From IMG/VR virus record IMGVR_UViG_3300025674_000024, positions 1-64,000 of that record: a stretch of 64,000 nt of DNA; one strand, given 5' to 3'. A model generated the notes under the pieces. That model saw nothing but the letters and a program-made list of their open reading frames with translations, made no database searches and had not been told where the DNA came from. The DNA is from a virus. Of this stretch, positions 20,864 to 54,643 are shown one piece after another (position 1 is the stretch's first letter; every line of letters begins with the position of its first letter). The position numbers and the translations under genes were made by a program.

Positions 20864-21349
20864 TCACTCGGGTAGACCGGACTTGCCGGCTTTAAGACGA
20901 TCGCGAACGCTCTTGGGAAGCCCTCTCTCCCAACCAAACTTCTTCGCGATCGAAATAATCTTGCGCATCACGGTGTCCGGATTTTTCGCTCTACCAACGG
21001 ATGACCAAGCCGCGGAGACGTCTCCGGGAGATGCAATCGGGAATGACATATCCGGACCGGCAAAACCTCCTTTCATCTCACCTTCCGACAGCGACTTTCG
21101 CATATCGGACGACCACTCACGATGAGAGACACCGTATGTATCCTCCTGATAGGAGATTTTGTTTTGTCGCGCCATGTCCATTCTTTGGCGACGACGGCCC
21201 ATGATTTCCTTCATGATATCATCACCGACGAGATACTCATTACGATCTCGCGGGATAAGGGCTTCAACTTTAGCCCGACGACGCTTATTCGCCTCGAGCT
21301 TACTCATGGCGACATTGTCGCCGATCAATGTGTCACGCAGATTCATCAT
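20864..21349 (-). CDS. DUF6582-domain protein
   Basis: Starting at the first of two ATGs (21349) with AGGAGG at 9 nt, the 161-residue protein has a basic helical N-terminus. Its C-terminus has FAGPDMSFPIASPGDVSAAW, then RAKNPDTVMRKIISIAKKFG and W. I recognise this as the DUF6582 pattern (F-AGPD-SFP...AW...IA...GW), often fused to phage head proteins. The first 17 bp overlap the acidic gene upstream. It may interact with capsid or scaffold; that is inferred from associations of the family only. Confidence 0.75.
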   Translation of the reverse strand: MMNLRDTLIGDNVAMSKLEANKRRRAKVEALIPRDRNEYLVGDDIMKEIMGRRRQRMDMARQNKISYQEDTYGVSHREWSSDMRKSLSEGEMKGGFAGPDMSFPIASPGDVSAAWSSVGRAKNPDTVMRKIISIAKKFGWERGLPKSVRDRLKAGKSGLPE

Positions 21350-22043
21350 CGGAGTCAACCTCCTCCTCTTCTTCAATTGGGTCTTCTTCGGAGTCGGTTT
21401 CCTCGACGGCCTCAGTTGGTTCCTCTTCTTCGTCCTCTGCTTCCGCTTCCTCCTCATCTCCCTCGAGAGTCAGGTTAGCGGACAGAGAGGCGAGTTCTTC
21501 CTTGAGAGCTGCGATCTTCTCCGCCACGGAGATGGCATCATCACCCTTTTCCTCATCACCCTCTTCCTCCTCATCGTCAGACTCTTCCTCGTCCTCACTC
21601 TCCTCATCTTCCTCGGACTCCGTTAGGATCTCGTCAAGAAGAGCATCGAGCTCCTCGTCTGTAAGATCACCGATTTTGTCCTCCTCCTCATCCTCTCCTT
21701 CCTCCTCAACCATCTGAGCGGCGAGAGCTAGGAGCTCCTCGTCGGAAAGGTCGGAGAGGTCGATGTCTTCCTCGATCTCATCCTCGTTCTCAGAACGGAG
21801 AGCGGAGAGAAGGTCTTCCTGACTCTGCTTGGTGTCCATGTAGTCTCCCTTTCCGTCGGGATACTTCCACAGACCCGTCTTGTCGAGCCAGTCCGCTTTG
21901 AAGGGTGCGGTCTCCAACCCGAGTGTGTCACTACCGATCTTAACACCGGCGGTTTCCACATCCTCAGCTTGGGAGAGTTGGTTAGAGTAGGCTTCCCTCA
22001 GTTGGTCGTAGGCCTCCTGAGAGAATTGACCGAAGCCTGACAT
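21333..22043 (-). CDS. Highly acidic Glu/Asp-rich protein
   Basis: The 236-residue product has a normal N-terminal ~75 residues (FSQEAYDQLREAYSNQLSQA, WLDKTGLWKYPDGKGDYMD). An extremely acidic remainder of long Glu/Asp runs follows, with helical islands (DLSDLSDEELLALAAQMVEE and AEKIAALKEELASLSANLT). Such proteins may mimic DNA, act as scaffold or fill the capsid; none of these is demonstrated. It has a GGGTAAAAC motif 26 nt upstream and immediately precedes (in transcription) the DUF6582 gene. Confidence 0.75.
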   Translation of the reverse strand: MSGFGQFSQEAYDQLREAYSNQLSQAEDVETAGVKIGSDTLGLETAPFKADWLDKTGLWKYPDGKGDYMDTKQSQEDLLSALRSENEDEIEEDIDLSDLSDEELLALAAQMVEEEGEDEEEDKIGDLTDEELDALLDEILTESEEDEESEDEEESDDEEEEGDEEKGDDAISVAEKIAALKEELASLSANLTLEGDEEEAEAEDEEEEPTEAVEETDSEEDPIEEEEEVDSDDESA

Positions 22044-22265: not shown

Positions 22266-23981
22266 TTAGATCCCGTCGTAAAGTTCGTTGATGTACCGTT
22301 CTGCGTCTTGGTCAGTCATCCTACCAAAGATCCTGTTAATTCCGTCCATGGAAGTGCGGATCTCCGCATTGACTCTGACTCCGAAGTCTTCCTCCATCTT
22401 GTCTCTCACTTTCTGAGAGTTGGACACGAAGCGTTGGACAGAGCGAGTGTTGTAGTCCTTAACCCGCATACGGTCCGCTTGCCAGTCACGGCCATTGGTC
22501 GTTCCGAGAGCCTCAATGAGAGCTGCTTTAGGACTAGTCTGAGCGAGACCGAAGTCCACGAGCCCGCCCTTGCCAGTGCTCTTATCGTAGAAGAAGTTCC
22601 CGCCGTGCATGTCGTTGTGAGCGACGCCGCGAGTGTGGATCGCTTTGCGTACGCGGAGATACTCGTCAGTCGCCGCTTCTTTCTCCTTAGAAGTCATCTG
22701 CCAGCGTTGGTCACCGTACGGCTCTCCCGCCATGCGAGACATACCAAGGTAGCCCGAGGCTTCCTTTACGTGACCACCTAAACCCCCCATCACTATCTTA
22801 GCCTTCCCAGAGACCGTGGCTCCGTGTAGAGTTGGCGTCACACCGCTTCCCTCAAGCTTTTTGATTGCAGCGGCTTCAAACTCTCCAATCTTCCCTTGCT
22901 TCGTGACTCCCGGAGGAGGACCCTCGGTCAGCTTCACTCGACCCATAGCGCCTTGGCCGATGAGCTGTCCTGGACCAGACATGTCTTTCTTCGGGTCATA
23001 ACCTTTAATTCCTTGCGGGATGTCAAAGCTTGTCTTCTCACCCACAGCTTTACCTCTTTTCGCTCTCCCTCCAGCACCCTTGGGAAAAGCACTGCTAGAC
23101 ACGCCTCTTTTACGAAGCTCACCTTCCACTCTCTTTCGCTGGTAAGCGTTAAGCTTCTCCTCCTTAAGGATTCGCATAAGCTCGGGAGTACGAGCGCCCT
23201 GGAGAAGCTTCTTGTTAACAACCATCGCTTTCTTAGGCGGGAGTGTTGAAAGTTTAGCAGCGGCTTTAGCGGCTTTAGCTTTGGTAACATCACCTGCTCG
23301 AGCTATCTTTTTAAGATCCTGCTGCATCGCTCTTTCAATGGAGCCGTAGAGTTTCTTCGCTACAGGATCCTTGGCTTCTTCCTTGGCCTTGCGAACTCGA
23401 GCCAAGCCCTTTTGCATTTCTTGAATCTTATTCTCTATGGCCAGTGTCCCTTCACCCTTAGGCTTAGGGGGAGTAGGGGGCGCCTCTCCCAGCACTCTCC
23501 TCACCATCTCTCGGCGAGCGGCGAGACCGCGAGACCCGGCCGCGAGCTGTTCACGCTCGAGAGACCGCTTTCCAAGCTCTTCCAGCGGACGGTCCTTGGG
23601 CTTTTGCTGTTGATCCTCGTCCTTAGGCTTTAACCTCTCTCCGAGGCGACGAGCGGCGGACTTAAGCGGAGCACCTTTCTTAACGATCTTGGCACCGTAC
23701 TTCTCACGGACCGCATCCGCTACGGACTTCACATCTGCTTGCTTCAGGCCTCTTTCCTTGGCCTTCTTCGCGATTGCGGGCATGCCCTCTCCGGGCTTCA
23801 CAGAGATAGGAGTTCCTTTGCGGCATTGTCCCTGAGTGCCGTACACGCTTCCATCGCGACGTTGGCACAGTTGCGCAAACTCGAAAGAGTCGTACTCTCC
23901 CTCGCTGAATTCTTCTACGAGAGAGTCTTTAACATACGAAAGAAGTTCTTCGTCGAACTCCCCGTGTTGCGAAAGCTTCAT
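22266..23981 (-). CDS. Tagged protein kinase, putative injected effector
   Basis: The 571-residue protein has the shared two-cysteine tag at residues 39-56 (CQRRDGSVYGTQGQCRKG). It then has a helical module shared with the 26116-27885 protein (PGEGMP...VREKYGAK). After a long basic linker comes a protein-kinase-like domain: Gly-rich loop GQGAMGRV (342-349), catalytic HNDMHGGN (455-462) and DFG (476-478). The catalytic Asp, Asn and DFG are intact. The ATP-binding lysine is not obvious. It probably phosphorylates host targets. The shared tag suggests packaging in the virion, as with other phage-delivered modifiers, but this is inference. It follows the duplicated tag protein by 3 bp. Confidence 0.75.
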   Translation of the reverse strand: MKLSQHGEFDEELLSYVKDSLVEEFSEGEYDSFEFAQLCQRRDGSVYGTQGQCRKGTPISVKPGEGMPAIAKKAKERGLKQADVKSVADAVREKYGAKIVKKGAPLKSAARRLGERLKPKDEDQQQKPKDRPLEELGKRSLEREQLAAGSRGLAARREMVRRVLGEAPPTPPKPKGEGTLAIENKIQEMQKGLARVRKAKEEAKDPVAKKLYGSIERAMQQDLKKIARAGDVTKAKAAKAAAKLSTLPPKKAMVVNKKLLQGARTPELMRILKEEKLNAYQRKRVEGELRKRGVSSSAFPKGAGGRAKRGKAVGEKTSFDIPQGIKGYDPKKDMSGPGQLIGQGAMGRVKLTEGPPPGVTKQGKIGEFEAAAIKKLEGSGVTPTLHGATVSGKAKIVMGGLGGHVKEASGYLGMSRMAGEPYGDQRWQMTSKEKEAATDEYLRVRKAIHTRGVAHNDMHGGNFFYDKSTGKGGLVDFGLAQTSPKAALIEALGTTNGRDWQADRMRVKDYNTRSVQRFVSNSQKVRDKMEEDFGVRVNAEIRTSMDGINRIFGRMTDQDAERYINELYDGI

Positions 23982-23984
23982 GAG

Positions 23985-25841
23985 CTACCTACTGCTTACT
24001 CCAAAGATGATCTGGAACCAAACTTCCTCATCTTTTTCAAGACTTTCGGCGAAGTCTAACCCCTCAATTTTACCGTTCTTAATCACCCCGGTCAGCAAGT
24101 TATTTCCCTGATGCTTAAACCCAAGTTTTTCGTACGCTTTTCTACGAACGTCGCCTCCACCATCCTCATCAAAAGCGAACGCTCTTACTTTCGTCCCGCT
24201 AGGAAGTCCGCCAAGAGCTTCATCAAACTGTCTCTTCGCTGTAAGAGCAATTCTTACCTGCTGACGACGGTCTGTGACTCCACCTTTGGTGTAGGAATCG
24301 TTGACCTTATAGCCAATCTCATAAGATCCGTCCGTCTTTGGAGTGACGAGAGTCTTAACTTCGTTACTCCCAACCTTATCAGTGATGTACACTCCCTCAG
24401 AGTCACTAGAGACTTTGTCTTTGCTTTCTCCCTTCTTCAGTCTCTCTTCTACTTTCTTAATTTTCTCTCCTCTCTTCTTGGCCTCTGGGCTTCCCTTTTC
24501 TTCTTGCGCCTTAATCTTTGCGGCGACGCTCATCGCTTCCCTGTTAAGTCTCAGGGCCGCGTCCATATCACCCTTAGCCATAGCCTCCTGAGCTCTCTTT
24601 GCTAAGCCAGAGTACTGAGTCTGAAGGTCGGGTTCTGCTTTCTTTTTAGTTTTAGGCTTAGTTGCTGTCGGCTTCCCTGAGAGTTCTTTCTTTGCTTGTT
24701 CCTTTGTCTTCTTTCCCTCTGCCACATCGAGAGCGGCTTTCGCTCTCTTGTTTCCAGAGGCCGCGGCTTTCTTCAGGGCCTTCATCTCTTTGGGACCCAC
24801 GGGAGTACCTTTCCGACAGGTTCCCGAAGTCCCATAGAAGGTCCCGTCCGCACGCTGACAACGAGCAAACTCAAGTGAATCCGCTTCGTTAAAGTCGTTT
24901 TTCTTATCGGGAGCTCCAAAAATAGCGATGTACCACAGAGCTGTGTCTTTGTCCTTGCCCTCTGCAAACATCAGGAGAGTGCTGCCTAAACCTTGCTCGG
25001 CCCTGTCGGAGGCACTTACTTTTCCACCTTTTCCAATGCGCCCATACTGTGTCCCAGGATTTGCATCGGTTCCAGAAGTCGGATCTGAAAAACCCATTCG
25101 TTTATAGGCTCTAATTCGAGACGCGCCTCGCCCGTCCTCTCCCCAAGCTGTAGCTTGAACTACATAACCTTCAGGCAAGTTTTGTCTATGAGCGTTCCAG
25201 ACACGCTGAACTTGGCGAGCAATAGCCATTTGCTCTTTCCGGTCTGTGATTTGACCAGCGTCATACTTGCCGTTGACTTGAAAGTTAAAATCGCCTTGAC
25301 CAAATGATGTGGTAACTACTGTTCCTCCAGGAGTTGTGAAAGTAGTTCCAAGAAATCCATTAGACTTAAATTCAACTTTGGTTCCTTTTGGAACGTCTTT
25401 CGTGACTCCTTCCACAACTTTTTCTGAGTTGGTGATGGGCTTGAGAGACTTTTCAGCTCGCTCTTTCATGAACCCTGCAAATTCATCTTCAGGGTCTTTT
25501 TTCAAATACTCGTTTGCTTTCTTTATTTGGTCTTCATAAATCTTTTTGTCTTTTTCAGCCTTAGCAATAGGACCGAGGGTACCCTTTAGGGTGCCACCTC
25601 TTTCGTAGTCAGTAGGCTTTTTAGGAGTTGTCTTTCCTTCAACAACTTTCAAAGCTGCTTCAGCTTTTTTATTGCCGCTTTTAGCCGCTTTCTTCAGAGC
25701 ATCGACTTGCTTTTCACTAACTTGCTTTCCTTTGCGGCAAGTTCCAGCAGTGCCGTAAAATGTCCCATCGGGACGTTGGCAACGAGCGTAGTCAAGGACT
25801 GTGTAAGCGCTCTCTGAGAATGTGGAGTACGTACGTTTCAT
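23985..25841 (-). CDS. Tandem-duplicated tagged protein with acetyltransferase-like halves
   Basis: The 618-residue protein is two copies of the same design fused head to tail. Copy 1 has the tag at 21-38 (CQRPDGTFYGTAGTCRKG) and a C-terminal fold with TDRKEQMAIARQVQRVW and RIRAYKRMGFS, ending ALWYIAIFG. Copy 2 has the tag at about 328-345 and the same features (TDRRQQVRIALTAKRQF, RRKAYEKLGFK, VWFQIIFG). The x-A-Y-x-x-x-GF signature resembles the end of a GNAT acetyltransferase, but no acetyl-CoA loop is obvious. It overlaps its upstream neighbour by 4 bp (25838-25841). It is likely an effector or virion protein; its activity is unproved. Confidence 0.7.
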   Translation of the reverse strand: MKRTYSTFSESAYTVLDYARCQRPDGTFYGTAGTCRKGKQVSEKQVDALKKAAKSGNKKAEAALKVVEGKTTPKKPTDYERGGTLKGTLGPIAKAEKDKKIYEDQIKKANEYLKKDPEDEFAGFMKERAEKSLKPITNSEKVVEGVTKDVPKGTKVEFKSNGFLGTTFTTPGGTVVTTSFGQGDFNFQVNGKYDAGQITDRKEQMAIARQVQRVWNAHRQNLPEGYVVQATAWGEDGRGASRIRAYKRMGFSDPTSGTDANPGTQYGRIGKGGKVSASDRAEQGLGSTLLMFAEGKDKDTALWYIAIFGAPDKKNDFNEADSLEFARCQRADGTFYGTSGTCRKGTPVGPKEMKALKKAAASGNKRAKAALDVAEGKKTKEQAKKELSGKPTATKPKTKKKAEPDLQTQYSGLAKRAQEAMAKGDMDAALRLNREAMSVAAKIKAQEEKGSPEAKKRGEKIKKVEERLKKGESKDKVSSDSEGVYITDKVGSNEVKTLVTPKTDGSYEIGYKVNDSYTKGGVTDRRQQVRIALTAKRQFDEALGGLPSGTKVRAFAFDEDGGGDVRRKAYEKLGFKHQGNNLLTGVIKNGKIEGLDFAESLEKDEEVWFQIIFGVSSR

Positions 25842-26119
25842 CCGCTGAAGAATCCTTTGCTGTAGAGAGACTCGCCGTAAAGGATGGCTGCAGCTGTGGA
25901 ATTGGCAACATCCTCCAGGTCAGGTACATCATCGCCACGCTCGGCCATGCGAGTGAAGAAGGAGATGAGAGCGAAAGCACCATCTAAGTCTGTGAACTCG
26001 TCTCCGATGAAGTCTCCGCGACGAATGCCGTAGGGACTTCCATCTTTCGCGAGAGCGATGATGATGAAGTTGGAGCCGGGGATGGAGATGGGCTCGGGAA
26101 GGTAGAAGAGTTGGTTCAT
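25838..26119 (-). CDS. Hypothetical protein in tagged-effector array, 93 aa
   Basis: The 93-residue protein (MNQLFYLPEPISIPGSNFII) lacks the two-cysteine tag and is bracketed by 4-bp overlaps on both sides, so it is co-translated with the tagged genes. It is acidic in the middle with a hydrophobic first strand. It could be a partner, immunity-like or chaperone protein for a neighbour. No motif supports a specific call. Confidence 0.65.
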   Translation of the reverse strand: MNQLFYLPEPISIPGSNFIIIALAKDGSPYGIRRGDFIGDEFTDLDGAFALISFFTRMAERGDDVPDLEDVANSTAAAILYGESLYSKGFFSG

Positions 26120-27885
26120 TTGTAGTAGCGAGAGATGGCCTCGATGTCCCGGTAGTTCGGGTCAGTGCGCTCGATCTTGAGATCGTTCATCTGAGGAGGA
26201 AGTTCCACGATCCTCACTCCCTGCTTCTCGAGCGCTCTGCGGGTAGCGGTGGGGATGTCGTGTCCTCTGTAGTATCTTACCTCTTTGATATCCGAAGTGC
26301 GTAAGCCGCCGTGGATCTGAGCTTCGACGTAGGCGGTCGGGAGGCGCATCCCGCCGTCCATTGACGTCGTCATATTCATACGCTGACCGATCGTCCCGCC
26401 ATTGTACTGGATGTCCTGCACCTGCGTGCGAGGGCTGCTCGGGTTAGCCGGGTCACGGACAGGACTGGCCATGATGCCCCTCGGCCGAGCTGCGTCCAGA
26501 GAGTCCCCAACAGTAAAGGTCGAGCGGTCCTTAACGCTGTTGTTAAAGACGACTTGCACTCCTCCGTACTGCGCCATCTGGTTCGGACCACCCTGCAGGG
26601 AACGAGCTCGGTCCGGGTGCTCCAGCGCTGCGTACACCGGGCGCTTTTCCGGAGCTTCCAACTTCGAGATCCCCATCACAGCCTCCTCTCCGCTCCTTCT
26701 TCCTTCGAGGTACCCGCTCTTGCCTCGCTTGATACCGCCCGTTCCAGCTTGGAACCCGTTCTTCGCCTCTCCCTCTTTGACGAACTTTGCGAAGCCTTTG
26801 GGGTTGAAGGCCATGACGGGTTCTGCACCGTCGAGAAAGTCCTTGAGGTCCTTGTCAGCACCCCCTCTGGGGACTCGAGTCGGCACGGACGCTGCGACTG
26901 TCCCTCCACCGTCAGAAGGAGCTTTGGTGAGCTTTATTGGTTCCCCAAAGTACGCCGCGTTGACTCCGTCGCGTGGCAGGTCGTTAGCTTTGATCCTTAG
27001 GTCGGTAGCCCTGGCTTCGAGAGCTTTTGACGGGTGGTCCTTCGGCGTGTTGTACGCATTGAATCCGTCTTTCTCGGCCAGCTCTCTAGCCTTCCGATTC
27101 AGCCGATCAGACTCGTCTGTCAGCTTCTTACGCTCTCCCGTGGCCTTGATGAACTCATCGCGGTCCTGCGCGTGGTAGGCTTGACGCATGAGGAGAGCGG
27201 CTTCGTGAGCCTTCCCGATCTTTGCGGAAAGGGCCTTGACCTCCGGATCTTTCCAGTCCTTCCCCTGCTTCGACAGCTCCGCTGCTTGCTCCTTGAGTTT
27301 AGCTTCTCGGTCGAGAGCTCGGTTGAACACCTCCTTGACTTTTTCGTCGGAGATCTTCGTCGGGCGCTTGCCCGAGTCTTGTGCCGGAGCGGAAACTTCC
27401 TCTTTCTTCTTCTCCGCTTTTGGAGTAGTAGCCTTGGGTGCCGGTGCAGGTTCTTCCTTCTTAGGCTTAGGCTCGGGTTTGACCGAGGCGGGCTTAGGCG
27501 CGGGTGTGGGAGTGAAGTCGGGCTTTACCTCCTCTCCCAACCTCTTCTTAATCTCTTTGAAAGCCGCTACGAGCTCCGGCCCCTTCTTAATCTGCTTGAC
27601 GCCGAACTTCTCTCTCACTTGGTCCGCGATGGCTTTCACTTCGGCGCCCTTGAGACCCGCGGCCACGGCTTTCTTATAGAGCACGGGCATACCCTCACCC
27701 GGCTCGAGAGTGATCGGCTTTCCTTTGCGACACTGCCCACTCGTTCCGTAGACGGAGCCGTCTGGGCGCTGACACGCTTGGCCAAACTCGAGAGAGTCGC
27801 TGAGTTCGGAGTAGCGGAGAGTGAGCACTTCACGTGCTTTAGCTTCTAAGGAGGAGTCCCAGCCTCCGTGTTGTGAAAGTCTCAT
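26116..27885 (-). CDS. Tagged protein with DUF3626-like C-terminal domain
   Basis: The 589-residue protein has the tag at 38-55 (CQRPDGSVYGTSGQCRKG) and the PGEGMP...VREKFGVK module also found in the kinase protein. A Pro/Lys/Ala linker and a coiled-coil region follow. The C-terminal ~200 residues contain RPVYAALEHPDRA, YGGVQVVFNNSVKDRSTFT with GDS following, and AYVEAQIHGGLRTSDIKEV. These are landmarks I associate with DUF3626, a domain found in toxin-like and phage polyvalent proteins. The catalytic mechanism is not known to me. The position and tag suggest a delivered effector. Confidence 0.65.
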   Translation of the reverse strand: MRLSQHGGWDSSLEAKAREVLTLRYSELSDSLEFGQACQRPDGSVYGTSGQCRKGKPITLEPGEGMPVLYKKAVAAGLKGAEVKAIADQVREKFGVKQIKKGPELVAAFKEIKKRLGEEVKPDFTPTPAPKPASVKPEPKPKKEEPAPAPKATTPKAEKKKEEVSAPAQDSGKRPTKISDEKVKEVFNRALDREAKLKEQAAELSKQGKDWKDPEVKALSAKIGKAHEAALLMRQAYHAQDRDEFIKATGERKKLTDESDRLNRKARELAEKDGFNAYNTPKDHPSKALEARATDLRIKANDLPRDGVNAAYFGEPIKLTKAPSDGGGTVAASVPTRVPRGGADKDLKDFLDGAEPVMAFNPKGFAKFVKEGEAKNGFQAGTGGIKRGKSGYLEGRRSGEEAVMGISKLEAPEKRPVYAALEHPDRARSLQGGPNQMAQYGGVQVVFNNSVKDRSTFTVGDSLDAARPRGIMASPVRDPANPSSPRTQVQDIQYNGGTIGQRMNMTTSMDGGMRLPTAYVEAQIHGGLRTSDIKEVRYYRGHDIPTATRRALEKQGVRIVELPPQMNDLKIERTDPNYRDIEAISRYYK

Positions 27886-28079
27886 TCTTTCTCCACGCTT
27901 CGCTTTCTCAACTCCGCCTCTATTGCCTTTCGCCCGCGCTGTGCGAGTTTATCTTTCGTCTTATTTTCTTTCTCTAGAGAATCCGCTTGACTAGGAAGTC
28001 CAAAAATGTATGGATCACCAGCCTCACTTCGACCCATCCTCTCCCGCACTTCTTGAGGTCTTTTAGGTTGAATTTTCAT
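27882..28079 (-). CDS. Small basic protein, 65 aa
   Basis: This lysine/arginine/glutamate-rich 65-residue protein (MKIQPKRPQEVRERMGRSEA) overlaps the DUF3626-like gene by 4 bp and starts 2 bp after the ADP-ribosyltransferase stop. It has no tag and no motif. Highly charged small proteins between effector genes could be DNA-binding or packaging adaptors, but nothing in the sequence shows this. Confidence 0.6.
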   Translation of the reverse strand: MKIQPKRPQEVRERMGRSEAGDPYIFGLPSQADSLEKENKTKDKLAQRGRKAIEAELRKRSVEKE

Positions 28080-28081
28080 GA

Positions 28082-29713
28082 TTAGACTTCCTCCACGGTG
28101 AAGATGTGCATCGGCTCGCCCTCAAATGTTTCAACGCGGTGGTTCGTGTATCTATATTTTGTGCCGCCAGGAGTTAGTATCTCTTTCTCGCCGCTCTGAC
28201 CAAAGTTTTCAACTGAAGCTCCGGTTCTATTACGCGTTTCAAAGATAACTCTCGCGCGATCTTGCACGACCTTACCGGTATATCCCGCTGAGATAAGGGC
28301 ACTAGTAGACCACGAAGCCGGTGCGGGATCACTAAAAGTACTCTTAGATTGCGCTGCTGAAATCATCTGATCTAGCGCTGAACTCGGAATGTTAATTCCA
28401 CGGTACTTTTCTACGTCAGGATGGTCCATTCGCGAAAGCATTTGATCGATTCTCTGCGCTTGTTTAGCCCGTATTGAATCGGACCCTGGCTGTTCAACTG
28501 CCCGTCTAATCGCTCGATAGTCATTTCGTGTGAAGTCGACGATGGAGTCAATACCTTTTTGAACTTCACGCTCGTCTCCACCGTATGCCTTAATAAGAGC
28601 TTTTGCCTGTTTAGACGTACCTAATTCACCCCATTCTCCAAAAATCGCTGTAGAGTTCTTATGCGCCCCATTTTGAGAAGGATTAGAGTCAGAATCCAGT
28701 AGTTTGATCATACTCCGCGACATTTCATATTTACTAAACCGCTCATTGGGGTCTAATTTCGCATATTCAATCCGGCGGTCTGCCTCTTCCACCCTGTCTT
28801 TAATCGGTTTCAAAAGCGCCTGTCTTTCTGTCCAAGAAGCCCCACTTTCTAAAAGTTTCATATCGTTCTCTTTCGCGACTTTTAACTCTTTTTTTGCTTG
28901 TGTTCGGTCACGAATTGCCACAGCCATTTCTTTCAGATCTTTCGCATCTCTTAAGTTTATGAGATTGTAATAGCGTTCTTGATTCTCATCAGAATCACCG
29001 GTAGCTTTTTTGCGAAGTTCGCGAAGACTGCTTATTTGATTGTTTATGCGAATTTGTTGGGCTTCTGTGAGTTGTTTAGGCGTAGGTCTTGAGAAGATAC
29101 CTCCCTCAATTGCTTTTCTATCATCAGCGATTCTTTGGAGTTGGTCTCGGATAGTGTACATCCGATCGTCAGCTTCGTCACTTCCCGTCTTTTCAAACTC
29201 TTCCTTAGCTGCTTTCATTGCAGCTTTAAGTCGAGTTTCTGTGGAATTGATTAGCTGAAGAGCCTCTTTTTTCTTCGTCTCAGCGTCAGAACCATCCGTC
29301 TCCTCTTTTACCTTTTGTTCCTCTCTATTTAAGTTCCTACGTGCTTTTTTACTCTTTTCACCAAGCTCTCCGTCTTTCTTCTCATCCTCAGCCCTACCTT
29401 GCTCAGGCTTCTTTTGGCTTTTTACGGGCTTTGGAGCGGGCTTGATCGCGCTAGAGGCCTCTTGAGTTGCTGACGGTTTGAGCCCAGGTTTTTCTGGGTC
29501 CTCCGTCCTAGAAAGTTTCTCAAGTGCTTTCTTTGCCCCGGAGTCTCCAGCTTTTGCTTTAGCCTGCAACTCTTTAATCTCTCTGGGGCCGACCTCCTTG
29601 CCTTTACGGCATTGTCCAGAGGTTCCGTAAAAGCTCCCGTCTGAGCGCTGACATCTTGCAAAGTCAAGGACTTCTAAAGCTTGCTCTGAAAATGTTGAAT
29701 AAAGTCTTTTCAT
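28082..29713 (-). CDS. Tagged ADP-ribosyltransferase, putative injected effector
   Basis: From ATG 29713 (ATGA overlap with the upstream gene) the 543-residue protein carries the tag at 21-38 (CQRSDGSFYGTSGQCRKG) and a long charged helical linker. Its C-terminal domain has the R-S-E signature of arginine-type mono-ADP-ribosyltransferases: YRGINIP with Arg about 438, SWSTSA about 467-472, and EKEILTPGGTKY with E-x-E about 509-511. The spacing and order fit the exoenzyme family. T4 Alt, an ADP-ribosyltransferase packaged and injected with the DNA, is the functional precedent. Modification of host RNA polymerase or translation is a reasonable guess. Confidence 0.75.
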   Translation of the reverse strand: MKRLYSTFSEQALEVLDFARCQRSDGSFYGTSGQCRKGKEVGPREIKELQAKAKAGDSGAKKALEKLSRTEDPEKPGLKPSATQEASSAIKPAPKPVKSQKKPEQGRAEDEKKDGELGEKSKKARRNLNREEQKVKEETDGSDAETKKKEALQLINSTETRLKAAMKAAKEEFEKTGSDEADDRMYTIRDQLQRIADDRKAIEGGIFSRPTPKQLTEAQQIRINNQISSLRELRKKATGDSDENQERYYNLINLRDAKDLKEMAVAIRDRTQAKKELKVAKENDMKLLESGASWTERQALLKPIKDRVEEADRRIEYAKLDPNERFSKYEMSRSMIKLLDSDSNPSQNGAHKNSTAIFGEWGELGTSKQAKALIKAYGGDEREVQKGIDSIVDFTRNDYRAIRRAVEQPGSDSIRAKQAQRIDQMLSRMDHPDVEKYRGINIPSSALDQMISAAQSKSTFSDPAPASWSTSALISAGYTGKVVQDRARVIFETRNRTGASVENFGQSGEKEILTPGGTKYRYTNHRVETFEGEPMHIFTVEEV

Positions 29714-30126
29714 TGTTCGTCGGCTCTGTTCATCTGTCCCTTGATCTTCTCTGCCCAGGCTTTGCCGGCATCGCCTCCCCATAACTCCCAAGAAACTTTT
29801 GAAGCGGAGGGTGGGTTGGTAGTGTGGTTCTTCTTGTAGGCGGAGTGACGAGCGAAGAAGCTGACCATGCGACCAATCGTCCCGGGAGAGAGTTTCTGAC
29901 GGTTCTTCAGCGAGGCGGCTCGAGCCACTCCGCTTCCGATCCCGGCTTTCCCGGCCTCCTTAGTCGACAGTCCACCGCGTCCCACTTGTTTGCGCAGAGC
30001 GAGACCGCGAGCGGCGGCATCAGCCACGGACTGGGGAGGGCGGAAGTCTATGTTAGCATACTTCTCCGCCCACTCCGGATTCTCGGCCCACTCGAGAGCC
30101 TCTTCGCTGAAATGTCCGCCAATCAT
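29710..30126 (-). CDS. Conserved phage domain protein (SFFARH...WGGDAG type)
   Basis: The 138-residue protein ends with TIGRMVSFFARHSAYKKNHT and KVSWELWGGDAGKAWAEKI. This pair of motifs recurs in many phage head-region proteins, alone or fused to other domains. Their role is not established, although a structural or scaffold-linked role is usually assumed. It lacks the two-cysteine tag, overlaps both neighbours by 4 bp and so travels with the effector array. It may help load or assemble the tagged proteins. Confidence 0.7.
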   Translation of the reverse strand: MIGGHFSEEALEWAENPEWAEKYANIDFRPPQSVADAAARGLALRKQVGRGGLSTKEAGKAGIGSGVARAASLKNRQKLSPGTIGRMVSFFARHSAYKKNHTTNPPSASKVSWELWGGDAGKAWAEKIKGQMNRADEQ

Positions 30127-30728
30127 CGCGCTCTCACGACTTTGTTTTTGATCCCTCTCTTAATGGCTTCCTCAGTCATCGCTCTGCGGCGTTGCTCAGG
30201 AGTCATATTAGCGAGTTCAGCCTCGCGCTTAGCACCTTGGCCGCTCCGCATCTCCACCTTAAGGCGGTCCCCCATGGCCTTTTTGATGATCTTGAGTGTC
30301 CCCTCCTTGGCGTCAATATCTCCTTCATCCACGGCCTTCATCACAGCTTTGTGGATCTTTCCGAGGTGAGCTGTGGTCTCCGCTTTAGCGTACACCTTGT
30401 CAAAGAGTTTGTCGTGTGTGTCTCCCCACGAGTAAGCTTCCGACTTAGCGGCTTCTTTGACCTCGGCCAATGCGGAGGAACTCATAGGCCCTGCGCCACC
30501 CTTGGGAGGCTTCACACCGAGATCCTCAGGGCTCACCTCTTTGCCCTTGCGACACTGGCCTCCAGTGCCGTACTTGGAGCCGTCAGGGCGTTCGCAGGTG
30601 GTGAAGTCGTACGCTTCGGAGAAGCTCTGGGCGCTCTCGTCGTAACTGTCTGAAGCACCGTGCTTTTCAGCGTAAGCCGCATAGAGCTGCTCGATGGATT
30701 CGGGTTTAAAGGTGCCTTGGGGTTTCAC
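30123..30728 (-). CDS. Tagged protein, unknown C-terminal domain, 201 aa
   Basis: The protein has a 45-residue leader and then the tag variant CERPDGSKYGTGGQCRKG. A helical, charged C-terminal ~120 residues follows (KIHKAVMKAVDEGDIDAKEG, TPEQRRRAMTEEAIKRGIKN). The start codon is GTG 30728. No catalytic motif is visible. Membership in the array and the shared tag are the only functional clues. The 103 bp before it (30729-30831) hold no clear gene, only a short unframed stretch encoding a helix-like tail. Confidence 0.65.
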   Translation of the reverse strand: MKPQGTFKPESIEQLYAAYAEKHGASDSYDESAQSFSEAYDFTTCERPDGSKYGTGGQCRKGKEVSPEDLGVKPPKGGAGPMSSSALAEVKEAAKSEAYSWGDTHDKLFDKVYAKAETTAHLGKIHKAVMKAVDEGDIDAKEGTLKIIKKAMGDRLKVEMRSGQGAKREAELANMTPEQRRRAMTEEAIKRGIKNKVVRAR

Positions 30729-30831
30729 GGGTCTGAGGTAATTAAGCCTATTTTAAACCATCTAAGCGGGTTACCCACGCTCCTTGATGATCTTGTCGAT
30801 GCGACGAACTTCAACTTTTTGAGCGGCTCAT

Positions 30832-31494
30832 CTACATGCGCTCCATCTTCTTCGCACGAGCGAAGTCGGCTTTTGCCTGAGAGTTACTAGTATAAGCTAG
30901 TGCTCGCATCCATCCCACTAACTCTTTTCTGTCGTAACTATCAAGGATTCCGCCTTGATCTCTACGCTTTTTCAAGAGCTTTTTGATGTTGTCAGCATTG
31001 ATCTTAGCCTGACCCCCCTGCTCTTCTGCTCTCGCAATGGAGCTTTTCACGGCCGGCATAAGCTTTCCTTCGCCACCACTCCCTCTTTCGACGACTCTGA
31101 GGATTGTGCGAGAGTCTTTAGACGCTTCTTTTTTGATAGCCTCGAGCTCACTTAGCGTCTTCTCGTCGCCAGCACGGCGCTGAGCTGCTCGCTCGAACAT
31201 CCCCTTGGTCTTAGCGGCAGCGGTGGCCTTGTCCTTTTCGCGGCGCATGACGGCTGGGTTGCTGGCCGCGCCCTGCTTGAGCTTCTCGGTGGGGGTCATC
31301 TCTTTCGCCCCAGCCTCCTTGCCCTTGCGGCACTGACCGCCAGTTCCGTAGAAGCTACCGTCGGGGCGCTGACAGCGGGCGAAGTCGTAGGCCTCGGCGT
31401 AGGCCAGTTGGTCCTCGGGATTCTCCGAGTACTTGAGTTCGGCGAGGGCTTTGGCGGCGGCCAACGCTTCGTCTGTGAAACGGTCTTTCCGCAT
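30832..31494 (-). CDS. Tagged protein, unknown C-terminal domain, 220 aa (first of array)
   Basis: This is the first gene of the array downstream of a terminator and a GGGTAAAAC motif. It has the tag CQRPDGSFYGTGGQCRKG at about residues 40-57 after an acidic leader (ENPEDQLAYAEAYDFAR). A largely helical remainder follows with SSIARAEEQGGQAKINADNI and a basic KKLLKKRR stretch. No enzyme motif is seen. If the tag is a virion-sorting signal, this could be an internal head protein rather than an enzyme. Confidence 0.7.
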   Translation of the reverse strand: MRKDRFTDEALAAAKALAELKYSENPEDQLAYAEAYDFARCQRPDGSFYGTGGQCRKGKEAGAKEMTPTEKLKQGAASNPAVMRREKDKATAAAKTKGMFERAAQRRAGDEKTLSELEAIKKEASKDSRTILRVVERGSGGEGKLMPAVKSSIARAEEQGGQAKINADNIKKLLKKRRDQGGILDSYDRKELVGWMRALAYTSNSQAKADFARAKKMERM

Positions 31495-33122: not shown

Positions 33123-33164
33123 AGAGAGCCGTAAGTGTCCTCTCCTCACAGTGTCCTCTCTCCT
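33123..33164 (-). repeat. Duplicated GAGAGGACAC element (copy 2)
   Basis: On the minus strand GAGAGAGGACACTG, then AGAGGACAC and GGCTCTCT appear in the same order as at 2996-3040 (plus). It begins at the terL stop and is followed by the phoH promoter-like motif. Both copies are therefore oriented toward the gene they precede. Confidence 0.5.
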
Positions 33165-34851
33165 AGTCAATGCCTACATCGTAACGTATATCCTGTCTCC
33201 CTCCTCTCCCCTTACCGAAGAATAGGCTGCTCTCCGCAGGTGTGAGCAACTCTCTCCTCCTCCCAGTCTTCATCTCTCCGAACTCTTTCATCAGATCTTT
33301 ACGACCCGAGCTCCTGCCTAAGCTACTCCTCAGAGCGTCGTTAAGCTCCGCTCCTCCCCCGTCAAGATGGAACATGTAGTAGGTACACGCCCAGACGACG
33401 GAGTCTGTACGGTCATCATGAGGGACGTGAGGGAACGCTGTGAGTTCCTTGATGAAGTCCTGAACCCACGCCCCATCTACGAACTTCACTCGTTTGGCTT
33501 CAAAGAGCGGGCATATCGTCTGGAGTCGGATCGTCTTGGACTTCAGAGGCTTAAACGGATGGACTTGGATCTTGCTCTCGCGTTCCAGCACCTGAATGAG
33601 TGATTGCCCAGAAGCGGCTTGCTCGATCGTCATGAAGCGTGCGCCATAATACTTCTGAGTCTGCTCCACCATGGCCATGAGGTCTGGGAATCCCCATCTC
33701 CCGTGCACAAGCTCTCGGATGTAGATGTTGTCAGGATCTTTGCGACTAAATCCCGCTACGCATATCACACTCTCGTCAGCCTGTTGCCTCTCGGAGAACG
33801 CCGTGTCGAGTGATAGGTAGGTGATGTCAAACTCCGGACACTCGTCTGGGTCTATGACTTGGACCCACCCGGCCTTGACAATAGAGCCTTCCTGAGCCGT
33901 CGGAGTCCCTTGGTACAACGCGGCGAACTTACTGCTTCCCATCGCGCGCTTTTGCGACAAGAGCATGTCCGTCGTGAAGACGGGGTTTGATGGCCAGTGA
34001 GACTCTCCGTTCTTACGGCCTAGAGGGTCTGTAGACTCGTTCTCGCAGATCCCGGGGATGTTGATCCAACGCCAGCCCGTCGGATTCTCCACCTCATCAT
34101 ACATCCCGTCGCCGTCCATGAGAATCCCGTGAAGGTCTCTTTCATGGAAGCGCGTGCCGATGAGTATTTGCGCCCAGCGGTTGGTGCGGCGTGTGGAAGC
34201 TTGTTCACCCCAGAAAGTCTCAAGACCTTCTAAAGCGGCTCTAGAATCAGACCCCTTCAGTGGGTCATCAATAACGAGGGCCCCAACTCCGGGACTGTCC
34301 ATCGCAGGTGTACCCGCCGTGAAGCCTGTAAGAACTCCTCCCACTGAAGTAGCTAGGATGTATCCCCCTCCTCTTATCCCATACTTTTCATCTGGGATAA
34401 AGCCCTGCCACTCTGGGAATACTTTCGTAAAATATTTATGCCTTAAGTACCCAAAGATCCCTCTATGAAACTTGTTGGAGAGCTGCTGCCCGTACGAAGC
34501 AATGATGTGCTGGGTCTGTTGATCTCTCCCAAGTAGCCATGCTACAAAGAGTTGAGAGAGCATAGACTTCCCAGAACGAGGCGGGCAAGAAACGATAAAG
34601 CGTTGATAGCGCCATTCCGCCACATCTTCAAACCCAGAAGCTATGATTTCATGAAATGGCTCCACCACTAACTTCCCATCAAGCATAAGATCAGAGAAGG
34701 CTAAAAAGCAACTTCTTGCTGCTCTATACTTATAGTCTAAGATGATACTTTTCGGGGCCTCCATGACCGTGAGTTCTTGGAGCCCTCTCTTATAGACTCT
34801 CCAGGAAGAAAACTCTTCTAGTTGAGAGACATGGCTAATGATAGGCCTCAT
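33163..34851 (-). CDS. terL: Terminase large subunit
   Basis: TerL is the ATP-driven DNA packaging motor and nuclease. The 562-residue protein has Walker A CPPRSGKS (89-96), Walker B ALVIDDPLKG, and a motif III-type region after it. The C-terminal RNase H-like nuclease acids are in YLSLDTAFSE and FMTIEQAASG. The length is normal, with no intein or intron visible. A GIY-YIG gene sits 2 bp upstream, separating it from the likely small subunit. Confidence 0.93.
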   Translation of the reverse strand: MRPIISHVSQLEEFSSWRVYKRGLQELTVMEAPKSIILDYKYRAARSCFLAFSDLMLDGKLVVEPFHEIIASGFEDVAEWRYQRFIVSCPPRSGKSMLSQLFVAWLLGRDQQTQHIIASYGQQLSNKFHRGIFGYLRHKYFTKVFPEWQGFIPDEKYGIRGGGYILATSVGGVLTGFTAGTPAMDSPGVGALVIDDPLKGSDSRAALEGLETFWGEQASTRRTNRWAQILIGTRFHERDLHGILMDGDGMYDEVENPTGWRWINIPGICENESTDPLGRKNGESHWPSNPVFTTDMLLSQKRAMGSSKFAALYQGTPTAQEGSIVKAGWVQVIDPDECPEFDITYLSLDTAFSERQQADESVICVAGFSRKDPDNIYIRELVHGRWGFPDLMAMVEQTQKYYGARFMTIEQAASGQSLIQVLERESKIQVHPFKPLKSKTIRLQTICPLFEAKRVKFVDGAWVQDFIKELTAFPHVPHDDRTDSVVWACTYYMFHLDGGGAELNDALRSSLGRSSGRKDLMKEFGEMKTGRRRELLTPAESSLFFGKGRGGRQDIRYDVGID

Positions 34852-50814: not shown

Positions 50815-53090
50815 TCAAGCGAACACGTCGTTGATATAGAAGCCAGAACCGAAACCGCCAGTGGAGCCCATGCCAGTGATGTTCACGGCACGCTCTACGG
50901 TGATCTCAGCACGGACCACGCGACGCTCACGGATGTAGTACTCAGGACGAACGGCGGGAGTGCCGGTCAGCTGGTAGGTGTAAGCGAATGCGGGAGTCGC
51001 GGCGTTGGCACCACCTGCGGGCATCACGGAATCGGAAGCGCTTAGCGGGCTGTAGAACAGCAGCACGGCGTTTTCGGGGAACACCGGAGTCAGAGTGCCG
51101 TCATCGGCGAGACGACGACCTTCAGCCACGCGGATACCGCGCTCGAGACCGAAGTAACGTGCGAGCACGTCCACGTCTATCGAGTCGGCGGTCGTGAACT
51201 GAATGCGATCCAGAATCGCGGCGTTGGTCAGCAGGCTGTCGAACACAGCGGTGCCGATTACGGCGCCATTGGGACGAATACCGATCTGATTGGATACGGC
51301 ACGCTTCCAGTTGAGAACGTCGGAGATGGGGTTGTTGCCAGCTGCACCCCAGCTAGCACCACCGGAGGAGATGCCGATCGTGGTGGCGTTAGCATCGTAG
51401 GTGGTCCAGTTAGCGTAACCGAGTCCCAGGGTACCACCGGCGACAATGTTGCCGGCTTCGTAGTTACCTGTGGTGCTCACCGCATTGGACACGGTCACCT
51501 CGTAGCTGTTCATGAGGCGGGACATCGCGTTGCGTGTCTCAATGGCGCGCAGGTCGACTTGAGCAGGGCCCTCACCGGCGTTCTCGATCACTTCCTCGGG
51601 AAGTTCCCAAGCGATCACTTCTTGCTCGAGAGCGTAAGCGTCGGTGTCGAAGCGGCTTTGAACGGCGGGGATGTTGGTGCCGTAGGCGCGACGGTAGTCG
51701 GAGATAGCGAAGGCTTCCTTGCCGAAGCGCAGGATTTTACCGGCGCGGGTGGGGGTGTCCACCACAGGGGCAATGAAGTTTGCGATGCTGGTCTCGGGCA
51801 GCATGAAGCCCTGAGCCAGGGTTGTGAGAATAGGCAGTATGTTATCGTAAAAGAGTTTAGCTTTTACTTCTTACGGTTTTCATTCCCGTAAGTTCAGACT
51901 ATATCATCATCCCTTGAATACGCCTTTAATCCATCCATCTCCAGGACATTCTTTACTCCTGGTTCTCTCTACGATACCGTCTTCTGCAATTCGGTACCAG
52001 CGAGTTTTTCCTTTAGACATCTTGCCACCTTTAGCGGCAAAATATTTTCCTTGGGGCCCTCTACCTCTTTCCCAGCCGTCACCCGGACAGGAATGAGATC
52101 TTGTAACTTGATCCTCTTTATGCCACCATAGCATTTTGCCAGTAGCTAGTCCGCCCTTTCGAGAGTTTTCTCGGGCGGTCGGATCATTCTCCATCAGAGC
52201 CTTCATAAACTTAGAATTAAGTTTCTTATGCTCTTCAGAAATAGTTTTGTTCTTGTGGGCTTTCCCTATGTTTTTTCTCCATTCTTCAGAGAAATTTCTC
52301 CCTAAGTTTGTTTTTAGACCGTCTAAACATTTTGTTCGTAGGTCTAAGTATTCTTGAGGAGAAAGTTCTCGTCCGTCTAGATGAGACATAAACCAGTAGG
52401 CTTGCTTAAGTTTGACTTCTTCTGGGAAAGCGTCTATAAGCAGCTTATGCGCTTGTAGGTGCTCTATTGGAGTAAGCCAAACTAAGTTTGAAGTATCGTC
52501 AGAACCGCCAAGACATCTTGAAATGATGTGATGAAGTTCGTGATACCCCTCTGGTTTTTCTTTGCGATAAAGGAAAGATGAAATGAATTCTGTGTACTCA
52601 GGGGAGCTGGGCGCTCGTGGGAAGGTTATTGTTGGGTCACTCACTTCCTAGTCGTTGAACCTTTTTATCTCAATCTATTTTACAAATAGACACCCGAGAT
52701 AAACTTGGCTGCTGATTCCCATTTCAGGGTTCCAGCAATTCACCCAGTTCTCGCATCCTTCTTACGAAAGAGCGGGACCGTTTTCACAATCGACACCACC
52801 GTAGGTGTCACGAAGCAAATGTGTTATCGTAAGAGAGTTTAGCTCTTACTTCTTACGGTTACTGTTCCCGTAAGTTCAGACTATATCATCATCCCGATCG
52901 TCTTTGCAGTTGATCGGGAGCCGGGCGCTCTTGGGTGGAGTTATTGTTGGGACTCATCCACCTAGTCGTTGAACGTTCCACAGAACCTAAGCCCTCTGTG
53001 GCTTCGCTGCTGATTCTCCTTTCAGAGTTCCAGCAATTCACCCGGTGTTCGACGCGGATCACTCCACGAAGGAACCTATCGATTCATCAT
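50815..53090 (-). CDS. Major capsid protein, split by two group I introns
   Basis: The gene is predicted as three exons: 53082-53090, 52767-52827 and 50815-51845, joining to 1101 nt (366 aa). Exon 1 is ATGATGAAT after an AAGGAG. Exon 2 gives ITHLLRDTYGGVDCENGPAL and the first base of a Tyr codon. Exon 3 resumes NILPILTTLAQGFMLPETS. The unspliced exon 3 frame alone starts 14 codons late at MLPETS. The product has an MCP-like core (RRAYGTNIP, LPEEVIENA, SYEVTVSNA, KRAVSNQIGIRPNGAVIGTA, RPEYYIRERRVVRAEI). The genes either side encode decoration and tail tube proteins. Splicing is predicted from sequence, not shown. Confidence 0.75.
51846..52766 (-). ncRNA. Group I intron 2 in the capsid gene (ORF-containing)
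   Basis: On the minus strand the 921-nt intron starts CGTAAGAAGG after exon ...CTCTTT. A P1 helix pairs TCTTT with GAAGGA, placing the required U-G at the splice site. Core elements follow: GGGTGAATTGCTGGAA and AATCAGCAGC (P4-P6), GTTCAACGACTAGG (P7 5' side), ATATAGTCTGAAC (P7 3' side). It ends in hairpins CTTACGG/CCGTAAG and a final ...TTTTACG. The HNH ORF lies inside it. Confidence 0.8.
51907..52644 (-). CDS. HNH homing endonuclease encoded in intron 2
   Basis: The 245-residue protein has the HNH centre YHELHHIISRCLGGSDDTSN and then LVWLTPIEHLQAHKLL, followed by NUMOD3-type segments (NIGKAHKNKTISEEHKKLNS; GGLATGKMLWWHKE). It starts at a GTG within the intron core, just after GACTAG. The frame ends before the P7 3' strand, so the intron could still fold with the ORF looped out. 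It probably spreads the intron to intronless capsid genes. Confidence 0.88.
   Translation of the reverse strand: MSDPTITFPRAPSSPEYTEFISSFLYRKEKPEGYHELHHIISRCLGGSDDTSNLVWLTPIEHLQAHKLLIDAFPEEVKLKQAYWFMSHLDGRELSPQEYLDLRTKCLDGLKTNLGRNFSEEWRKNIGKAHKNKTISEEHKKLNSKFMKALMENDPTARENSRKGGLATGKMLWWHKEDQVTRSHSCPGDGWERGRGPQGKYFAAKGGKMSKGKTRWYRIAEDGIVERTRSKECPGDGWIKGVFKG
52828..53081 (-). ncRNA. Group I intron 1 in the capsid gene (ORF-less)
   Basis: On the minus strand this 254-nt intron starts CGATAGGTTCC after exon ATGATGAAT, where P1 can form AUGAAU with GUUCCU including a terminal U-G. The core is nearly the same as intron 2: GGGTGAATTGCTGGAA, AATCAGCAGC, GTTCAACGACTAGG, ATATAGTCTGAAC, and the 3' hairpins ending in ...CTCTTACG. 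It has no endonuclease ORF. Confidence 0.78.
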
Positions 53091-53172
53091 TGACTTTAAG
53101 TCTCCTTCTGCAGAAGATATAGTTTGTCCCTGGACTTACACCAACCCCAAGAGGTTAGATGCCAGGGTGAAA

Positions 53173-53722: not shown

Positions 53723-54643
53723 CTACCTATACTTGATCACACACCGGCAGCGGTCATGGCACCTACACCCCACTCCTGGCATAGGGAGAGATCCGATTGG
53801 CACCCAGCCGAGAGAGTCGTAGTATTTGCAGTCCTCACACACTCTCCTATCGTGCTTTGAGCTGCGCCGCATCTCTTTGAATCCCTCGGTTCTCTTCTTG
53901 GAAGACTCCCCTGTGACGAACCATCTCCAGAGAGGAGTGACTAAGAATCTCTTAAGACGAGCGCCGAGTCCATTCCAGGTAGCGGGGCCTCTCTGCCTTT
54001 GCCTCGGTTTGGATTCCTTTTGAGCTTTCTCAGCCTGAGTGTCGGTCTCAGCGGTAGGACTAATCTTACGGCCTTTGCCCTCTTTCTGAGTGTCTTTAAC
54101 TGTAGTCTTAGCCGCTCGAATTGCCGCTTTGGTAGCTCGAGCCCCTGTGAGGGGGATGACAAGAGATGTGGGAGCAGAGACTACCGGAGCTTCGAGATTT
54201 CTTTCATCTTGGGACACAGTGAGGGGTTGGTCTTCTCCCGGGACAGGATAGTACCAATCATCATCCTCCTCCTCCTGGTAATTCTCCTCATCTGAGAGAC
54301 GGTCATTATCCAGGGAAAGCTTGATGTCGTCAAAGAAGTTCCAGAGGTACTTCATCTGACCCATCGTCTCGGAGTAGAGAGTCTGTGGGATCTTTGTCTC
54401 TCCCAGTCCTAGCATCACAGCTGCAACTGATGAGATAAGAGTATCCTCTGCAGAAGCCCTCTGGAACTCTGAGAAAGTGATCTTATTGGCTTTGAGCTTT
54501 CTTGTGAGGGCCTCAGCTCGGCCTTCCATCTCCGCCTCTAGGCCCTCAAGAGAGGTGAAGGATTCAGCTAAGCGCTGGGCACGGTCGATGTAACTCTCCC
54601 GGCGCTTAGCCGCCTGACCAATAAAGGACAGAAGCTCCATCAC
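53723..54643 (-). CDS. MuF-like minor head protein
   Basis: The 306-residue protein is helical at first (SLEGLEAEMEGRAEALTRKL), then has an acidic/basic linker. It ends in a Cys/His cluster VCEDCKYYDSLGWVPIGSLP then GVGCRCHDRCRCVI. That ending is characteristic of SPP1 gp7/MuF-type head morphogenesis proteins, which sit at the portal and may be ejected. The order portal, scaffold/protease, MuF-like, decoration is Mu-like. It overlaps the protease gene by 4 bp. Confidence 0.7.
   Translation of the reverse strand: MMELLSFIGQAAKRRESYIDRAQRLAESFTSLEGLEAEMEGRAEALTRKLKANKITFSEFQRASAEDTLISSVAAVMLGLGETKIPQTLYSETMGQMKYLWNFFDDIKLSLDNDRLSDEENYQEEEDDDWYYPVPGEDQPLTVSQDERNLEAPVVSAPTSLVIPLTGARATKAAIRAAKTTVKDTQKEGKGRKISPTAETDTQAEKAQKESKPRQRQRGPATWNGLGARLKRFLVTPLWRWFVTGESSKKRTEGFKEMRRSSKHDRRVCEDCKYYDSLGWVPIGSLPMPGVGCRCHDRCRCVIKYR

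What the first reader, a model, noticed from the sequence alone, without database searches (positions are those of the whole stretch)
22266..31494. Array of proteins sharing an N-terminal CX13C module fused to different effector domains
Six genes within 9.2 kb (at 22266, 23985, 26116, 28082, 30123 and 30832) carry a near-invariant module CQRxDGSxYGTxGQCRKG, one of them twice, always near the N-terminus. They are joined to unlike C-terminal domains: kinase, acetyltransferase-like, DUF3626-like, ADP-ribosyltransferase and two unknown. The layout (constant head, variable payload) resembles polymorphic toxin or polyvalent-protein logic and T4 internal proteins such as Alt that carry a packaging signal. 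I infer a capsid-sorting or injection tag on a set of host-takeover effectors. I know of no named family for the motif.
Basis: partly seen in the sequence, partly recalled or inferred. Interest (0 to 1): 0.88.

Follow-up and report, generated by a model that had tools for sequence, protein, structure and literature searches.

The report
Shared-head cargo proteins of cyanophages
A group of viruses that infect cyanobacteria encodes many different enzymes that all carry the same short front end, which looks like a delivery tag for loading them into the virus shell; one such protein has been reported in purified virus particles, but the tag itself has not been tested.

Summary
In detail: seven copies of CxRxDGxxYGTxGxCRKG lie in six head-region genes and nowhere else in the 85.7 kb virus record. 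The module is virus-specific: 157 distinct proteins in the loci fetched, almost all viral, against 2 hits in 257 Gb of bacterial and archaeal genomes. 13 of 23 carrier contigs have psbA/psbD, so they are cyanophages. Recognised payloads are mostly of the host-takeover type: kinases, ADP-ribosyltransferases, NMNAT-like nucleotidyltransferases. The 'acetyltransferase' is unproven. New here: the head has parts. A leader helix is followed by a [FY]-[SA]-E tripeptide (62-fold enriched over payload interiors), then the Cys module. The same tripeptide is nine-fold enriched in the scaffold part of the phage's Mu-like maturation protease, which suggests a prohead cleavage site as in T4 internal proteins. 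Two papers state that an NMNAT of phage S-CBWM1 was found in virions; that phage's only NMNAT-like gene (gp39) carries the module. Best reading: a lineage-specific family of virion-packaged, probably injected effectors with a processed N-terminal head. Cleavage, injection and the role of the Cys module are inferred.

The parts
22266..23981 (-). module protein 1: leader + FSE + module + helical region + kinase payload (571 aa)
   Evidence: phrog_18305 kinase
23985..25841 (-). module protein 2 (618 aa): two [module + payload] units in one polypeptide; payload of unknown fold, GNAT-like only by motif
26116..27885 (-). module protein 3: DUF3626/phrog_8314-like payload (589 aa)
28082..29713 (-). 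module protein 4: ADP-ribosyltransferase payload with YRG / STS / EKE (543 aa)
   Evidence: profile-profile E 1.2e-8 with the ART alignment A5
30123..30728 (-). module protein 5 (201 aa), payload unknown, homologues with module in other phages
30832..31494 (-). module protein 6 (220 aa), payload unknown
31322..31374 (-). CX13C module copy 1
30544..30596 (-). CX13C module copy 2
29601..29653 (-). CX13C module copy 3
27722..27774 (-). CX13C module copy 4
25729..25781 (-). CX13C module copy 5
24808..24860 (-). CX13C module copy 6 (internal, residue 328)
23815..23867 (-). CX13C module copy 7
31393..31401 (-). predicted prohead-protease site YAE, 6 residues before Cys1
   Evidence: motif enrichment; cleavage itself inferred
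30615..30623 (-). predicted site FSE
29684..29692 (-). predicted site FSE, 10 residues before Cys1
27805..27813 (-). predicted site YSE
25812..25820 (-). predicted site FSE
24885..24893 (-). FNE, 8 residues before the internal module: predicted cut between the two cargo units
   Evidence: inferred
23901..23909 (-). predicted site FSE
29710..30126 (-). module-less neighbour (138 aa) with the same leader (MIGGHFSEEALEW); phrog_2859
21333..22043 (-). acidic neighbour; relatives elsewhere have a leader-like N-terminus (GDYSHEALEAFRAAYA)
54640..56703 (-). Mu-like maturation protease fused to a scaffold region with repeated [FY][SA]E sites; proposed processing enzyme
   Evidence: PF10123, phrog_976
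33163..34851 (-). terminase large subunit, anchors the cargo locus in relatives
50815..51804 (-). major capsid protein (3' part)
   Evidence: phrog_1005
56743..58152 (-). portal protein
   Evidence: phrog_113

Best explanation
These are cargo proteins of a cyanophage head. Each is made late as leader helix + [FY]-x-E + CX13C beta module + flexible linker + enzyme. The leader docks the protein in the scaffold core of the prohead. The Mu-like protease cuts after the E, as it does in its own scaffold, and leaves a mature cargo that begins a few residues before the CX13C module. DNA packaging locks the cargo inside, and it enters the host with the DNA, where kinases, ADP-ribosyltransferases, NMNAT and other enzymes reprogram host proteins or NAD. 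Genes with two modules would be cut into two cargos. Shown here: the shared anatomy, virus specificity, motif enrichment in leaders and scaffold, payload classes, locus. From literature: an NMNAT of S-CBWM1 detected in virions; that it is gp39 follows from my search finding only one NMNAT-like domain there. Inferred: the cut, docking by the leader, injection, and the module's role.
For: (1) Virus-specific: 66 stretches in viral contigs and 2 in 257 Gb of genomes with the same pattern; 157 distinct proteins, 110 of 143 complete ones with the module in the first 50 residues. (2) 14 of 21 contigs holding both have a module within about 11 kb downstream of TerL on the same strand. (3) [FY][SA]E: 27.3 per 1000 residues in the 40 aa before the module, 0 in the module, 0.44 in payload interiors; 27 of 56 leader clusters against 3.8 expected by shuffling (max 12 in 1000 shuffles); E-to-Cys spacing peaks at 6, 8 and 10. 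(4) Same tripeptide in the scaffold part of the protease fusion: 88 against 9.3 expected; one column has it in 13 of 13 proteins and one at the protease-scaffold junction in 9 of 13. (5) Tandem genes (window 23985, L033) repeat F-x-E before the internal module at spacings 8 and 10. (6) Payloads: Pkinase 9, ADPrib_exo_Tox 7, CTP_transf_like 4 of 97; the ART profile matches the Vis toxin at 7e-13 with R-S-ExE invariant. (7) S-CBWM1 NMNAT reported in virions (PMC9602691; PMC10665884); gp39 is the only PF01467 match there and carries the module.
Against: No direct N-terminal sequence or cleavage data. 21 of 68 strict copies lack the tripeptide (in a loose form) within 25 residues, gp39 itself included (some have mis-called starts, others short leaders). 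The MCP has no such site. Another S-CBWM1 kinase of the kind reported in virions (RIO type, gp113) carries neither leader nor module, so the head is not required for packaging. In S-CBWM1 and in the larger contigs some module genes lie far from TerL. The original proteomics paper (Xu 2018) was not readable here, and the citing authors allow that such proteins might be co-purified rather than packaged.
Confidence: 0.62

Rival explanations
1. Virion-packaged cargo, but the sorting tag is the Cys module itself and [FY]SE is only part of the helix that precedes it (an N-cap in fixed register), not a cleavage site.
For: The module is far more conserved than the leader. Fixed E-to-Cys spacings. Two S-CBWM1 kinases annotated ChoK- and APH-like, the types reported in virions, have a different N-terminal Cys module (CxKGKSCGSAC) and no leader. 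The AlphaFold model puts helices before a three-strand module.
Against: Does not explain why the same tripeptide is about nine-fold enriched in the scaffold of the protease fusion and not in payloads, nor why the leader occurs on module-less neighbours.
Confidence: 0.22
2. Late assembly or DNA-condensing factors of the head that are in the virion or prohead but are not injected effectors; the enzymatic payloads act during late infection.
For: Location in the late head cluster; basic RKG motif; several payloads unknown.
Against: Recognised payloads are enzymes of the classes Iyer et al. list for injected polyvalent proteins (ART, kinase; PMC5512222). Cargo content varies between relatives, unlike assembly factors.
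Confidence: 0.1
3. A general protein-protein interaction or metal/disulfide module acting on host targets, with no link to packaging.
For: Two invariant cysteines and a predicted beta fold without known relatives; one cyanobacterial MAG protein with a signal-peptide-like start carries it.
Against: Virus-specific distribution and head-locus position; the cyanobacterial case is not conserved (2 weak, stop-containing hits in 150 other genomes); NMNAT of S-CBWM1 reported in virions.
Confidence: 0.06

Closest known systems
T4 internal proteins (IPI-III, Alt) with the capsid targeting sequence
   Same: Set of diverse early-acting proteins united by a short N-terminal signal, encoded with head genes, proposed to be removed by the prohead protease after a glutamate (T4, phiKZ, 201phi2-1 and SPN3US proteases all cut C-terminal to E; PMC5694885). 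The CTS is the only conserved part of T-even internal proteins (PMC3012670).
   Different: Protease is Mu-like (PF10123), not shown to be gp21-like; proposed motif [FY][SA]E; an extra conserved CX13C module remains on the cargo; up to eight module genes in one array; tandem cargos in one gene.
Polyvalent proteins (Iyer et al. 2017, PMC5512222)
   Same: Payload classes (ART, kinase, nucleotidyltransferase); predicted to be in the virion and injected.
   Different: Mostly single-payload proteins with a constant head in arrays, instead of 2-15 domains in one chain; nucleotidyltransferase is of the CTP_transf/NMNAT type, not Pol-beta. L151 and L022 (1051 and 1004 aa), which also carry the module, look more like true polyvalent proteins.
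Virion-associated kinases and NMNAT of cyanophages (S-CBWM1, S-SCSM1, S-CREM2)
   Same: Same enzyme types; gp39 of S-CBWM1 is a member of the present family.
   Different: No shared head linking them was mentioned in the passages read of two citing papers; the original S-CBWM1 paper was not available.
Polymorphic toxins
   Same: Constant N-terminus with exchangeable C-terminal enzymes.
   Different: No immunity partner identified, no secretion domain seen; phage head locus.

Membership tests
T4-type internal proteins with CTS | Short N-terminal signal shared by otherwise unlike proteins | tested here: met
T4-type internal proteins with CTS | Signal ends in a prohead-protease site with E at P1 | tested here: inconclusive
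   Motif enrichment strong; cleavage not observed
T4-type internal proteins with CTS | Processing by a gp21-type protease | tested here: not met
   The only protease candidate matches PF10123 Mu-like_Pro and phrog_976
T4-type internal proteins with CTS | Present in mature virions | tested here: inconclusive
   NMNAT of S-CBWM1 reported in virions by two citing papers; only one NMNAT-like gene there
T4-type internal proteins with CTS | Injected into the host | not testable with these tools
   needs infection experiments
Polyvalent proteins | 2-15 domains in one polypeptide including effector enzymes | tested here: not met
   Window proteins have one module and one payload (two units in 23985); L151/L022 are possible exceptions
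Polyvalent proteins | ART, kinase, GNAT or nucleotidyltransferase domains | tested here: met
   GNAT not confirmed
ADP-ribosyltransferases (Vis/VIP2 class) | R - S(T)S - ExE catalytic residues in the ART domain | tested here: met
   (R245, S277, E321/E323 invariant); window 28082
Polymorphic toxins | Cognate immunity gene and export domain | not tested
   Neighbours were read and none named as immunity, but no dedicated search was made

The most novel reading that the evidence does not exclude
A whole lineage of cyanophages uses a plug-and-play cargo system: a two-part N-terminal head (removable leader plus retained CX13C ejection or DNA-lodging module) loads an exchangeable set of early effectors into the capsid, including polyproteins cut inside the prohead into several effectors, with a parallel four-cysteine module (CxKGKSCGSAC) doing the same job for other kinases.
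Probability: 0.35. Interest if true: 0.86.

Novelty: new variant of a known kind. Interest (0 to 1): 0.68.

Why it matters
If right, a 20-residue sequence mark lets one list virion-packaged effectors of cyanophages straight from genomes; over 150 candidates are already visible. It would explain in one mechanism why kinases and NMNAT keep turning up in cyanophage virion proteomes, extend T4-style protein delivery to a Mu-like capsid system in phages of abundant marine and freshwater cyanobacteria, and offer a testable cargo tag.

Tried and rejected
Acetyltransferase payload: no Pfam, PHROG or PDB sequence match, and an AlphaFold model (pLDDT 73, strand-helix order compatible with GNAT) has no Foldseek match below E 0.2 and none listed to a GNAT; left as unknown. 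Fold of the module: AlphaFold gives helix-helix-three strands (pLDDT 72.5, pTM 0.37), no PDB relative, only another module protein of S-CBWM1 among viral models. Host gene family for the module: only one cyanobacterial MAG protein and one end-of-contig Gemmobacter hit. C-terminal F[SA]E tails: 8 against 3 interior (p 4e-5), but four belong to one payload family, so treated as suggestive only. MCP as protease substrate: no site found. Iterative profiles for counting payloads drifted through linkers, so only Pfam counts are used. Scans with whole window proteins returned only the near-identical contig. DUF3626 function: nothing useful in the papers held.

Full report
Observation. The record is an 85,659-base viral contig, the strict pattern counts seven in the whole record and a profile of the module finds no further copy in the window or the adjoining 20 kb. 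The genes lie at the end of a late, one-strand structural cluster: tail sheath, portal, Mu-like protease fused to scaffold, a small conserved protein, major capsid protein, baseplate, terminase, PhoH, HNH, then the module genes.

Distribution. A strict DNA pattern for the module hit 66 stretches in viral contigs and two in 257 Gb of bacterial and archaeal genomes. One of the two is at the very end of a low-coverage MAG contig; the other is a small protein with a signal-peptide-like start in a Prochlorococcaceae MAG, not conserved in 150 relatives. A relaxed pattern and a profile gave 157 distinct module proteins. 40 records were examined: 21 hold a TerL match, 54-80% identical to the window's apart from one near-identical contig, and 16 hold the conserved end of the protease-scaffold fusion (the query was the C-terminal 265 residues). 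13 of 23 carry psbA or psbD, and the one named isolate is Synechococcus phage S-CBWM1. The window's own record has no psbA/D match, so its host is inferred from relatives.

Anatomy. Upstream of the module lies a leader, in its long form MxGxFSxEALxxYxxL..., then [FY][SA]E, then YDFTR and the first cysteine. The tripeptide occurs at 27.3 per 1000 residues in the 40 residues before the module, at 0 in the module, at 0.44 in payload interiors (odds ratio 64) and at 1.0 in other window ORFs. After reducing the leaders to 56 dissimilar clusters, 27 carry it, against 3.8 expected by shuffling. The distance from E to the first cysteine clusters at 6, 8 and 10. In the protease fusion the tripeptide is rarer in the first 130 residues and nine-fold over shuffled expectation in the rest (88 against 9.3), although much of that region is unconserved; one position holds it in 13 of 13 relatives and another, just after the protease domain, in 9 of 13. 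T4, phiKZ, 201phi2-1 and SPN3US proteases all cut after E (PMC5694885). I therefore read [FY][SA]E as the cleavage motif of this Mu-like protease. That is an inference; the rival that it is a helix start in fixed register is kept.

Leader and module are separable. The leader is found on neighbours without the module, for example window 29710-30126 and a 163-aa protein of L061 (MIGSFSQDSLNAFNKLVSQENEANFAEEG). A second, four-cysteine module (CxKGKSCGSAC) stands at or near the N-terminus of other proteins of the same loci, including the ChoK- and APH-like kinases gp161 and gp162 of S-CBWM1, and in L049 it too follows an FAE. AlphaFold on 68 module regions gives two leader helices and a three-strand module at moderate confidence, without structural relatives.

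Tandem cargos. The window gene 23985 holds two units, and L033 holds one unit of the same payload followed by another payload that exists alone in L036. Internal modules are preceded by FNE or FFE at spacings of 8 and 10. This fits a polyprotein cut inside the head; it is a prediction.

Payloads. Of 97 module proteins, Pfam recognises protein kinases in 9, ADP-ribosyltransferase exoenzymes in 7, APH in 5, CTP_transf_like in 4 and DUF3626 in 2 (families overlap). A profile of six ART payloads matches the Vis toxin at 7e-13 and HopU1, C3-like and VIP2 enzymes more weakly, with the R, S and ExE residues invariant; the window's 28082 product aligns to it at E 1e-8. The kinase at 22266 has HNDMHGGN...VDFG. 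The payload of 23985 remains unidentified.

Virion evidence. The S-SCSM1 paper says that an NMNAT was detected in the S-CBWM1 virion proteome, and the S-CREM2 paper says that APH, ChoK and Rio2 kinases and an NMNAT-like protein were (PMC9602691; PMC10665884; the latter citing Xu et al. 2018, which I could not read). My search finds one PF01467 match in S-CBWM1, in gp39, and gp39 carries the module. So by a short inference one module protein has been seen in purified particles. The same authors caution that such proteins could be co-purified. The RIO kinase gp113 has neither module nor leader, so the head is not the only way in.

Conclusion. The set works like the T4 internal proteins but is not filed as a member of that family, because the protease candidate is of another type; it overlaps in payloads with polyvalent proteins without their many-domain architecture. 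Ranking: packaged cargo with processed leader 0.62; packaged cargo without cleavage, tag in the Cys module, 0.22; others below.

Noticed in passing
window 51804-53170: The major capsid gene appears interrupted by two group I introns (51870-52804, containing an HNH ORF at 51907-52644, 48.5 bits, just under the 50-bit gathering score; and 52852-53108, 60.3 bits). MCP also appears split in L079, L080 and L082.
   Followed up: partly
L040 (contig IMGVR_UViG_3300014050_000004), 2127-11451: An even larger array: eight module genes with nine copies (one degenerate) in under 10 kb, with kinase, NMNAT-like and ART payloads among them.
   Followed up: partly
L069 14869-16734 and 29366-30997; L163 30780-32342; also L009, L021, L022, L023, L045, L049, L057, L087: A second N-terminal module CxKGKSCGSAC[IV]...C in neighbours of CX13C genes and in S-CBWM1 kinases.
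   Followed up: partly
L068 264-668: A Prochlorococcaceae MAG protein with a signal-peptide-like start carries one full and one degenerate module; unexplained.
   Followed up: partly
L151, L022, L105, L135: Proteins of a seemingly different phage type carry the module without leader or [FY]SE; by eye they include ParB-like, RelA/SpoT-like and JAB-like segments (no significant Pfam match for L135 and L151).
   Followed up: partly
window 19047-20060: DUF6496 + DUF5824 protein with a TFSE; its C-terminal domain also matches the end of the phage 'cytidyltransferase' family phrog_3041, possibly another cargo domain.
   Followed up: partly
C-termini of 23985-type payloads and NMNATs (window 23985, L013, L027, L033, L047, L061, L062, L066): F[SA]E followed by a short W..IFG-like or charged tail at the C-terminus; could be a C-terminal propeptide.
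   Followed up: partly
G013 (40,250 bases; L014, L024, L096): The contig holds its module genes and TerL twice in inverted order, possibly an assembly duplication.
   Followed up: no
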